Source: Candidatus Gastranaerophilales bacterium (GTDB taxonomy: Bacteria; Cyanobacteriota; Vampirovibrionia; Gastranaerophilales; Gastranaerophilaceae). From it: DNA of 64,000 bases. The position numbers and the translations under genes are program-made. Location: positions 1-64,000 of the forward strand of contig CANPYW010000005.1 in the NCBI GenBank assembly GCA_947588745.1, read 5' to 3'. The stretch's first letter is position 1. The number at the start of each line of letters is the position of its first letter. A model generated the notes under the pieces. It was given only the letters and a program-made list of their open reading frames with translations. It made no database searches and was not told the DNA's origin. Positions 48,564 to 50,576 of the stretch are shown here, one piece after another.

Positions 48564-48569
48564 AAATAT

Positions 48570-48601
48570 ATTATAAAAGAGGCAACAATTATTGTCACCT
48601 C
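48570..48601 (-). terminator. Terminator hairpin overlapping the hydE promoter
   Basis: The stem GAGGTGACAA/TTGTTGCCTC (10 bp with two G-T pairs, 3-nt loop) followed by TTTT ends the multidomain gene upstream. The same bases contain the hydE -35 (GTGACA, 48598-48593) and the -10 (TATAAT, 48575-48570). Confidence 0.65.
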
Positions 48602-48625
48602 ATTTTATGGTATTATATACATTTA

Positions 48626-49732
48626 TTAACTTGCGGCACTTCTCCTTGCCGGGCGATGAATCATTCCTGCTCTTTTCGCATATTCCTGAAGTTTTACCAT
48701 TTGCTCGTTTGAAATATAGCCTTTATCAACCAAATTCTCCCAAGAATCCGGATGTACCAATCTTTGTAATTTTCTGTAAGTTTTTACATCGTAAGGATTT
48801 TCGAATAATTGTTTTTCAAGTTCTACGGCTTTCTTTAATGCTTCATCATACGAATTTTGAGCGGATTTTGCGGCATCCGAGAAATTTTTCGCCGTACTTT
48901 TTGCAGTATTTGAAGTTGCATTCGTGGTATTTCCCAAGTTGTTTGCAGCACTTTCAACATTTTGTTCCAATTTTGCGGCGGATTTTAATCCGTCATCAGT
49001 TGAAGCGGCAGCGGATTTTATTCCGTCATCCGTTGAAACGGCTGCACTTTTTATGGCATCATCCGTCGAATTTAATACCGTGGAAGCATTCGAGGAAGAA
49101 TTTGCCGCAGCGGACACGGTATTATCACATTCCGAAACAACAAGTCCCGTTTCTTTAACAGTTGTTAAAGCAGCCCTGGCTGAAGCGATTTGAGCCGCAC
49201 TCATATATCCCAATGCGACATTTTCCGCAACTTCAACCGTTGAACCTCCGATTTTTTCAATTGCTTCACGAGCTTGAGCATCGGTAGTTGCCGATTGAAC
49301 TTCTTTAAATGCTTCAATGCCGTTTTTAACGGATTTTGCACCATTAATTACGGCACAACCTAAACCTGCGGCACCTGCTACCGCTAAAGCAGCCGGCCCA
49401 AACAAAAGAGTTGCACCTACAGTTAAACCAACCACCCCTGCTGTTATACCCAATGTTTTAACGGGATTGGATTTTACGGCATTTATAACACCCGTAACCT
49501 GCCCTTTTAACTTCTTTCCCGCACCGGAGAAGAAAGCTCCCGCTTTTTCTTTAAATGAGATTTTTCCGTCATCTTTTCCGTCTTTACATTCGGAATTAAC
49601 TTTAGAATTGTTAACATAAATATCGGAAAAAGCTTTGAATACATCAGAGGAACGGTTCATATTCCTTTGAACATTTTTTATTTGTTCGTAAGTAACCGCT
49701 TTTTTACTTTGTACGTCAGAAACAAATCCCAT
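48626..49732 (-). CDS. Lineage-type multidomain protein: EF-hand-like loop, glycine-rich helix, tandem repeats, HPD motif
   Basis: This 368-residue protein is unknown to me. Visible elements in order: an EF-hand/dockerin-like loop DGKDDGKISFKE (51-62, with D1, D5, G6, I8 and E12 of the loop pattern); a hydrophobic Gly/Ala-rich hairpin (about 92-135) able to insert in membranes; a Ser/Asn/Ala-rich region with three tandem 10-residue STDDxIKSAA units (about 213-247); and a C-terminal helix-HPD-helix YRKLQRLVHPDSW (319-331), like helix II and the loop of J domains. The combination suggests an exported or envelope-interacting protein, but no signal peptide is seen. GGAGAAAGG precedes the ATG. Confidence 0.6.
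   Translation of the reverse strand: MGFVSDVQSKKAVTYEQIKNVQRNMNRSSDVFKAFSDIYVNNSKVNSECKDGKDDGKISFKEKAGAFFSGAGKKLKGQVTGVINAVKSNPVKTLGITAGVVGLTVGATLLFGPAALAVAGAAGLGCAVINGAKSVKNGIEAFKEVQSATTDAQAREAIEKIGGSTVEVAENVALGYMSAAQIASARAALTTVKETGLVVSECDNTVSAAANSSSNASTVLNSTDDAIKSAAVSTDDGIKSAAASTDDGLKSAAKLEQNVESAANNLGNTTNATSNTAKSTAKNFSDAAKSAQNSYDEALKKAVELEKQLFENPYDVKTYRKLQRLVHPDSWENLVDKGYISNEQMVKLQEYAKRAGMIHRPARRSAAS
48970..49078 (-). repeat. Tandem 30-bp coding repeats
   Basis: Three imperfect 30-bp units encode STDDxIKSAA-type decapeptides. Identity between units is high but not perfect, so they could expand or contract by slippage. Confidence 0.7.
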
Positions 49733-49845
49733 ATTTTCCCTTTCTCCTTTGGAAAAAATTTAATACATAATTAAATAAAAAAATTTTTCTTACAGAATTG
49801 ATATAAAAGAAATTTTTGTAAATTTTTATTTCAAAAAAATAGTTC

Positions 49846-49874
49846 TTCATTTTTTGATAATTATATGCTAATAT
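49846..49874 (+). promoter_or_regulatory. Candidate promoter of the ATP synthase operon
   Basis: TTCATT (49846-49851), a 17-bp spacer and TAATAT (49869-49874) with an upstream TGc extended -10 lie about 28 bp before the atpB ATG. AAGGAGAA is the ribosome binding site. The rest of 49733-49845 shows nothing but A/T-rich DNA. Confidence 0.4.
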
Positions 49875-49901
49875 ACTTATAGCTCTTTAAGGAGAATATT
49901 T

Positions 49902-50576
49902 ATGGGCGAACATTGGGCAGGTTATATAGGTAATTTTCACGTTCACTGGGATACATTAATAACAATGTGGTTTGCAATGATTGTTGTTATTACGTTTTCT
50001 TTTATAATGACACGAAATTTATCCGTAATACCAAACAAATTACAGGCAATCGGCGAAAGTATAATAAAATTTTTTCTCGGAAATCTATCCGAAATTAAGA
50101 ACGGAGAAAAGCACATACCCATTGTTGCTTCATTATTCTTATTTATTTTAACCGCAAACCTTATGGGGCAATTACCGTTAAGATTAATACATCTTAAGCA
50201 GGGAGAATTGGCTTCACCCACAAATGACATAAATTTAACGGCAGCACTTGCGGTTTTGGTATTATTATATTACCTTTTACAAGGTTTTAAAGAAAAAGGA
50301 ATTAAATACATATACCATGGTTTAAGTATAACGGGGATTATTACAACATTGGTAGACCTGCTTGAAATGATAACAAGACCTTTGAGTCTTGCACTTCGTT
50401 TATTTGCAAACATACTTGCAGGAGAGATACTTGTATCAGTTGTAATGGGTCTTATAGCAATTATAGCTCCCGTACCTGTCATGCTTTTTGAAATATTCGT
50501 GGCATTTATACAGGCGTTTGTATTTATGATGCTTACAATAGCATATATAACATCAGCAGTTTCTAATGAACATTAA
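49902..50576 (+). CDS. atpB: ATP synthase F0 subunit a
   Basis: This 224-residue proton half-channel subunit has about five membrane helices. The penultimate helix holds the essential Arg in SLALRLFANILAGE (about 165-178), and the last helix contains FEIFVAFIQAFVFMMLTIAYI. It works with the c-ring to convert proton flow to rotation. It is the first gene of the operon; no atpI-like gene precedes it. A good AAGGAG site is present. Length is slightly shorter than typical cyanobacterial a subunits (about 240-250). Confidence 0.96.
   Translation: MGEHWAGYIGNFHVHWDTLITMWFAMIVVITFSFIMTRNLSVIPNKLQAIGESIIKFFLGNLSEIKNGEKHIPIVASLFLFILTANLMGQLPLRLIHLKQGELASPTNDINLTAALAVLVLLYYLLQGFKEKGIKYIYHGLSITGIITTLVDLLEMITRPLSLALRLFANILAGEILVSVVMGLIAIIAPVPVMLFEIFVAFIQAFVFMMLTIAYITSAVSNEH

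What the first reader, a model, noticed from the sequence alone, without database searches (positions are those of the whole stretch)
48626..49732. Unknown protein combining an EF-hand-like loop, glycine-rich hydrophobic hairpin, decapeptide repeats and an HPD J-domain-like end
This domain order is not one I know. The HPD within YRKLQRLVHPDSW mimics the J-domain helix II/loop that stimulates DnaK, the loop at 51-62 could bind calcium, and the hydrophobic hairpin could insert into membranes. The repeats differ by few bases and may vary in number between strains. It could be an effector or a membrane-recruited co-chaperone.
Basis: partly seen in the sequence, partly recalled or inferred. Interest (0 to 1): 0.6.

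Follow-up and report, generated by a model that had tools for sequence, protein, structure and literature searches.

The report
Membrane hairpin protein with J-like tail
An uncultured gut relative of cyanobacteria (Candidatus Gastranaerophilales) carries an undescribed modular protein whose front half looks built to sit in a membrane and whose tail resembles the Hsp70-activating J domain; related proteins with the same parts recur across the group, so it is a real family rather than an oddity, but its function is untested.

Summary
In detail: an intact 368-aa gene (48626-49732, minus) has an EF-hand-like loop, a Gly/Ala-rich hydrophobic hairpin, three tandem 11-residue repeats (not decapeptides) and a C-terminal HPD. 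The host is a Candidatus Gastranaerophilales genome.

Residues 49-182 are a new module without a Pfam or NCBIfam match. It occurs in 88 of 147 relatives, 1-6 copies per genome, only within this bacterial class in my survey, joined to about 30 kinds of C-terminus.

The HPD tail is not chance. Nine relatives share it (HPD in 8, HTD in 1). Four from other genera repeat the order loop-hairpin-linker/repeats-HPD tail. A profile of the nine scores far above shuffled controls against real J domains (32.9 vs at most 15.3). A cousin (L263) passes Pfam cut-offs for both EF-hand and DnaJ, with DnaJ at its extreme C-terminus.

Against: the window protein itself has no Pfam DnaJ hit, and its predicted C-terminal fold is a helical bundle that did not retrieve J domains. 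The EF loop is non-canonical (Lys at position 3).

Best explanation: a membrane-tethered, J-like recruiter of DnaK. Rivals: an exported effector, or a helical bundle that only keeps the HPD. Export, calcium binding and DnaK stimulation are untested.

The parts
48626..49732 (-). Whole gene, 368 aa plus stop
   Evidence: homologues
49744..49750 (-). Ribosome-binding-like AAAGGAG, 11 nt before the ATG
   Evidence: sequence read
49595..49732 (-). N-terminal polar tail, aa 1-46, no obvious Sec signal peptide
   Evidence: low pLDDT; variable between relatives
49187..49588 (-). N-terminal module, aa 49-182: DGKDDGKI loop, amphipathic stretch, hydrophobic hairpin, TTDAQAREAIEKIGGSTVEV helix
   Evidence: alignment A2; searches; no Pfam/NCBIfam match
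49547..49582 (-). EF-hand-like loop, aa 51-62
   Evidence: loop statistics over 92 relatives: non-canonical
49337..49456 (-). Gly/Ala-rich hydrophobic hairpin, aa 93-132, positively charged on both flanks
   Evidence: hydropathy, flank charges +7 and +1
48971..49069 (-). Three tandem 11-residue repeats STDDxIKSAAx, aa 222-254
   Evidence: related repeats in L002-L005 and L259, L260
48629..48886 (-). C-terminal J-like HPD module, aa 283-368
   Evidence: predicted helical, pLDDT 88.5
48746..48754 (-). HPD tripeptide, aa 327-329
   Evidence: HPD in 8 of 9 relatives, HTD in the other
48579..48601 (-). Terminator-like hairpin after the stop codon, before the next gene (hydE-like)
   Evidence: consensus match only

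Best explanation
The gene encodes a member of a new modular protein family of Candidatus Gastranaerophilales and most likely works as a membrane-tethered, J-like recruiter of the bacterium's own DnaK. The N-terminal module inserts a short hydrophobic hairpin into the inner membrane and leaves both ends in the cytosol (inferred from hydropathy and positive flanks). The Ala-rich DD repeats form a helical spacer (inferred). The C-terminal HPD module docks on DnaK and triggers ATP hydrolysis at the membrane, on the protein itself or on clients held by it (inferred from conserved HPD and similarity to J modules). Shown here: the gene, the family, the recurring domain order, the conserved HPD and the sequence link to J domains. 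Not shown: membrane insertion, topology, DnaK binding, calcium binding, client.
For: HPD is conserved in 8 of 9 relatives with otherwise divergent tails. A J-like model built without this protein scores its tail at 15.4 bits, 0 of 5000 shuffles. The nine-member profile against real DnaJ/CbpA J domains of the genus: probability 85%, score 32.9, maximum 15.3 in 60 column shuffles; against J-like tails of 12 other proteins: 96.8%, score 56.6, maximum 15.0. Those other tails are themselves J-like: a profile dominated by them finds DNAJ in the PDB (1bqz, E=1.5e-5) and DnaJ/CbpA-sized genes in most genomes. L263 passes Pfam cut-offs for EF-hand (40 bits, cut-off 25) and, at its last 49 residues, for DnaJ (34.8 bits, cut-off 27.8). 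L259-L262 repeat the order module-linker/repeats-HPD tail, with clear DD repeats in L259 and L260. Hydrophobic hairpin with positive flanks. DnaJ-type genes are present in the same genome.
Against: No Pfam DnaJ match for this protein even at E<=10. The tail scores only 7.0 bits against the genus's own J domains directly (19 of 5000 shuffles reach it), and helix I of a J domain is not recognisable. The predicted tail is a long helix plus a bundle with HPD at a kink; Foldseek and VIA-align listed other helical bundles, not J domains. The closest N-module relatives end quite differently, so the HPD tail is one of many options. L007 has HTD. Topology is a guess.
Confidence: 0.5

Rival explanations
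1. It is an exported effector or inter-bacterial protein. The shared N-terminal module is a delivery and membrane-insertion part, the variable C-termini are the payloads, and the J-like payload acts on an Hsp70 of another cell.
For: One N-module joined to about 30 unrelated C-terminal clusters among 96 members, with 1-6 copies per genome and patchy presence. The slot between hydE and atpB is empty or holds other genes in relatives. Other members carry a single annexin repeat or weak matches to effector families (Peptidase_M91 E=0.15; Ssp4 T6SS effector family E=1.3e-4 in one member). The plant-pathogen effector HopI1 has the analogous order N-terminal region - repeats - C-terminal J domain (PMC4617103).
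Against: No signal peptide evident and no secretion-system gene beside this locus; secretion systems were not surveyed in the genome. The annexin and EF-hand parts also occur in non-exported proteins. The module was not found in viral contigs, and toxin-like immunity partners were not seen.
Confidence: 0.27
2. The C-terminus is a helical bundle descended from, or resembling, other bundles (histidine-phosphotransfer-like, BAG-like), in which the HPD is not a DnaK contact; the protein is a structural membrane protein.
For: Predicted fold of the tail is a bundle. Best structural matches are helical bundles including BAG domains and designed bundles. A four-member tail profile finds designed four-helix bundles in the PDB at E 0.03-0.05, ahead of DnaJA3 at 0.36.
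Against: The matches have Foldseek E of 0.27 or worse and Z below 9, which the tool describes as common for helical bundles. The residues after the His do not match the HxxKG signature of phosphotransfer domains (signature from my own knowledge). HPD is one of the few near-invariant features of the tail family, which is hard to explain without a function for it.
Confidence: 0.18
3. The tail is a J-like tag whose only role is to keep its own hairpin-containing protein soluble or insertion-competent through DnaK, not to serve other clients.
For: J-like tails sit at the extreme C-terminus of several unrelated hydrophobic-hairpin proteins (L263, L264, L265, L266), as expected for a self-acting tag.
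Against: It also sits on YwqK-repeat-like proteins without a known membrane part, and most N-module proteins do without it.
Confidence: 0.05

Closest known systems
Class C J-domain proteins anchored in the membrane (E. coli DjlA, DjlB, DjlC)
   Same: A J module on a membrane-anchored protein that serves an Hsp70 (DjlC is inserted in the plasma membrane, DjlB/DjlC are tail-anchored; PMC8215388). DjlA carries its J domain at the C-terminus (own knowledge).
   Different: Different membrane part (Gly/Ala hairpin module), added Ala-rich repeats, J module too divergent for Pfam, predicted fold not J.
HopI1 of Pseudomonas syringae
   Same: N-terminal region, central repeats, C-terminal J domain (PMC4617103).
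   Different: Type III effector with P/Q-rich repeats; no comparable sequence or delivery evidence here.
Pfam DnaJ (PF00226)
   Same: TYRKLxxxxHPD helix-II/HPD signature; cousins of this protein match the family (L263 above the cut-off).
   Different: The window protein has no match; helix I and the classical geometry are missing or unrecognised.
EF-hand families (PF13405, PF13499)
   Same: D1-x-x-x-D5-G6-x-I8-x-x-x-E12 spacing; true EF-hands in the cousin L263.
   Different: Lys at position 3, extra Asp at position 4, single loop, no Pfam match.

Membership tests
J-domain protein (DnaJ, PF00226) | Invariant HPD | tested here: met
   HPD 327-329; HPD in 8 of 9 relatives
J-domain protein (DnaJ, PF00226) | Match to the family profile above the curated cut-off | tested here: not met
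   No DnaJ match at E<=10 for the protein or its tail; the cousin L263 passes
J-domain protein (DnaJ, PF00226) | Sequence relation to J domains beyond chance | tested here: met
   Nine-member profile vs J: 32.9 against at most 15.3 in 60 shuffles; 15.4 bits, 0 of 5000 shuffles with the J-like model
J-domain protein (DnaJ, PF00226) | Antiparallel helices II and III with HPD in the loop between them | tested here: inconclusive
   Model has helices 34-44, 46-54, 60-76 with HPD at 45-47; no J domain among listed structural matches; shallow alignment
J-domain protein (DnaJ, PF00226) | Stimulates Hsp70 ATPase | not testable with these tools
   needs protein
EF-hand calcium-binding protein | Oxygen ligands at loop positions 1, 3, 5 and acidic 12 | tested here: not met
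   K53 at position 3; over 92 relatives position 3 is Lys in 64, position 12 acidic in 56
EF-hand calcium-binding protein | Pfam EF-hand match | tested here: not met
   none at E<=10
Integral membrane hairpin protein | Hydrophobic stretch long enough for two short membrane helices | tested here: met
   19-residue windows above 1.5 cover residues 93-132; insertion itself not tested
Secreted effector | Export by a known secretion system | not tested
   no signal peptide evident; secretion systems not surveyed in the genome
Histidine phosphotransfer domain | HxxKG around the phospho-accepting His | tested here: not met
   HPDSW here; relatives HPDV, HPDT, HTDY, HPDK

The most novel reading that the evidence does not exclude
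Candidatus Gastranaerophilales carry a large, polymorphic family of membrane-inserting proteins built on one new N-terminal module; some members end in an Hsp70-recruiting J-like payload and are delivered to other cells, in the manner of HopI1.
Probability: 0.2. Interest if true: 0.8.

Novelty: new variant of a known kind. Interest (0 to 1): 0.52.

Why it matters
Gastranaerophilales are widespread, uncultured gut bacteria about whose host or community interactions almost nothing is known. A lineage-restricted module joined to dozens of different C-termini, several with calcium or membrane parts and a C-terminal J-like tail, gives concrete, testable candidates for how these cells work at membranes. 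It would also extend J-domain proteins to a new membrane architecture and show how far a J module can drift while keeping its HPD.

Tried and rejected
Fold search with the full-length model gave nothing (all E above 1; mean pLDDT 60). A single-sequence scan of genome contigs found no relative; the alignment did. J domains were absent from the Foldseek and VIA lists for the tail model; I take this as inconclusive because the alignment held 12 sequences and all matches were weak. PADLOC LeoBC (E=9e-4) and BORCS6 (E=0.017) were set aside as likely coiled-coil or low-complexity matches. PHROGs gave only weak matches, none with a useful function for this protein, and viral contigs gave no relative, so a phage origin has no support. 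The 188-aa ORF on the opposite strand (48592-49158) was taken as an antisense artefact. Histidine-phosphotransfer membership was rejected for lack of HxxKG. L007 does not by itself score above shuffles with the J-like model.

Full report
What is there. The gene at 48626-49732 (minus) is intact: 368 aa, ATG, AAAGGAG 11 nt upstream. It lies between a hydE-like gene (same strand, with a terminator-like hairpin at 48601-48579 between them) and the divergent ATP synthase operon starting with atpB at 49902. Gene names for the neighbours rest on my reading of their translations. Named records carrying the closest relatives are mostly Candidatus Gastranaerophilales metagenome-assembled genomes, from samples labelled rabbit (Lapin), rumen, goat, sheep and red deer among others.

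The features. The EF-like loop D51-E62 has the right spacing, but Lys at position 3. In 92 relatives D1, D4, D5, G6, K7 and I/L8 are nearly invariant, while position 3 is Lys in 64 and position 12 is acidic in only 56. It is therefore a conserved motif but not a canonical calcium site. Residues 93-132 are continuously hydrophobic, with net charge +7 before and +1 after. The repeats are three 11-residue units, 33 bp each. HPD is at 327-329.

The N-terminal module. Residues 49-182 align with 40 other proteins. A profile finds the module in 88 of 147 relatives and in 39 of 41 genomes of the genus, at 1-6 copies each. In 386 genomes across the phylum it was found in 80, all within this class. Pfam and NCBIfam have no model for it. 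Among 96 members the C-termini fall into about 30 clusters by all-against-all BLAST. One member of the first set has an annexin repeat above the Pfam cut-off.

The locus is variable. Of the same-genus atpB loci fetched, L189, L190, L191 and L211 have hydE directly beside atpB; L192, L201, L204, L205, L208 and L209 have a different gene of about 140-170 aa there; only the window genome has this gene. In the single-protein search no full-length close homologue was found in the genus.

The C-terminal module. A search with the last 79 residues and with Pfam DnaJ found further HPD tails: the same N-module with HPD in G012 (L031) and HTD in G040 (L007); a 929-aa protein ending ...TYRYVMTKLHPDSW... 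in G013 (L108); and a family of 600-640-aa proteins with YwqK-like repeats (repeat name from my own knowledge) ending ...MDxxTYRKLAxKFHPD... in about 13 of 41 genus genomes. The last group is J-like: its model hits true J domains of the genus down to 4e-7, and a profile made mostly from it finds DNAJ chains in the PDB (best E=1.5e-5). That model, which does not contain the window protein, scores the window tail at 15.4 bits, 0 of 5000 shuffles; L108 21.1 bits, 0 of 5000; L031 9.3 bits, 1 of 5000; L007 is not significant. Among 768 real C-termini only J-like ones outscore the window tail.

Same architecture elsewhere. A profile of the four tails found four more proteins in other genera of the family (full genes L259-L262): an N-terminal region with an annexin-like repeat (27.7 and 32.3 bits in L259 and L260, cut-off 25), the DDG loop and hairpin module, an Ala-rich stretch (DD repeats: three units in L259, seven or more in L260), and a tail such as LNPTDTKTYRKLVTMVHPDV. 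L266 adds a fifth tail, on a different front part. HPD is kept in 8 of the 9 tails. The nine together give 85% probability and score 32.9 against true J domains (maximum 15.3 in 60 column shuffles) and 96.8%, 56.6, against the other J-like tails (maximum 15.0). Because these relatives were found with profiles that include the HPD, its conservation is partly selected for; the score against J-like models built without them is the cleaner test. L263, a 930-aa protein from the same bacterial family, has EF-hands (40 bits), a hydrophobic region, DD/Ala repeats and a DnaJ domain (34.8 bits, cut-off 27.8) in its last 49 residues.

Structure. The full-length model is poor (pLDDT 60) and its fold search empty. 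The tail alone, with 12 sequences, is confident (pLDDT 88.5, pTM 0.72) with helices 2-29, 34-44, 46-54 and 60-76; HPD lies at 45-47, at a kink. Foldseek's best is a designed four-helix bundle at E=0.27 and no J domain is listed; VIA-align gives bundles at Z below 9. This speaks against a textbook J fold but is weak evidence either way.

Mechanism. The most economical reading is a membrane-tethered J-like protein: hairpin in the inner membrane, both ends inside, helical spacer, HPD tail to DnaK. Replacing the His or Asp of HPD abolished Hsp70 stimulation in every J system tested (PMC8215388), so conservation of HPD in otherwise divergent tails suggests a DnaK contact. Steps shown: gene, family, order, conservation, sequence relation. 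Steps inferred: insertion, topology, DnaK contact, clients. The main rival is export, because one front module with many different ends is the pattern of effector families, and HopI1 offers the same order with a J payload shown to act on Hsp70 (PMC4617103). No export evidence exists here.

Verdict. I do not file it as a J-domain protein, since the family profile is not met; I file it as J-like. The literature searches gave no paper on these proteins, within an open-access library only.

Noticed in passing
L091, L092, L094-L098, L109, L055 (C-terminal 85 aa): Proteins of 600-640 aa with YwqK-like repeats in about a third of the genus end in a J-like domain just below or above the Pfam DnaJ cut-off.
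   Followed up: partly
L263:987-3776 and L264:47-1942: Large proteins with EF-hands, a LysM-like stretch, a hydrophobic hairpin, Ala-rich repeats and an extreme C-terminal J domain; L263 is above Pfam cut-offs for both EF-hand and DnaJ.
   Followed up: partly
L265:729-1973: 415-aa protein with a hydrophobic stretch, a long (TGNTGN)n array and a C-terminal J-like domain.
   Followed up: no
L010, L011, L012, L015, L033, L035, L042, L119, L149, L175, L180: Eleven N-module proteins share a C-terminal domain of roughly 230-245 aa; the representatives scanned have no Pfam or NCBIfam match there (YMSKANEAQAYRFNPNGTEEEILANNPGVF...).
   Followed up: no
L018:1006-2304, L259:369-2456, L260:466-2769: Single annexin repeats above the Pfam cut-off in bacterial N-module proteins.
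   Followed up: partly
window 48564-49901 and L187-L213: The interval between hydE and atpB is variable in the genus: empty, a small gene with an F-x-x-K-type N-terminus and a hydrophobic hairpin, or other genes.
   Followed up: partly
L093, L187, L192, L208, L265, L266 (N-termini): Many proteins of these genomes begin with a short polar stretch containing a motif such as SFYGK, VFRSK, INFRGT or AFRAQ, often followed by a hairpin; it might be a targeting motif.
   Followed up: no
window 48570-48601: The terminator-like hairpin after this gene overlaps a near-consensus promoter (GTGACA-17-TATAAT) for the hydE-like gene.
   Followed up: no
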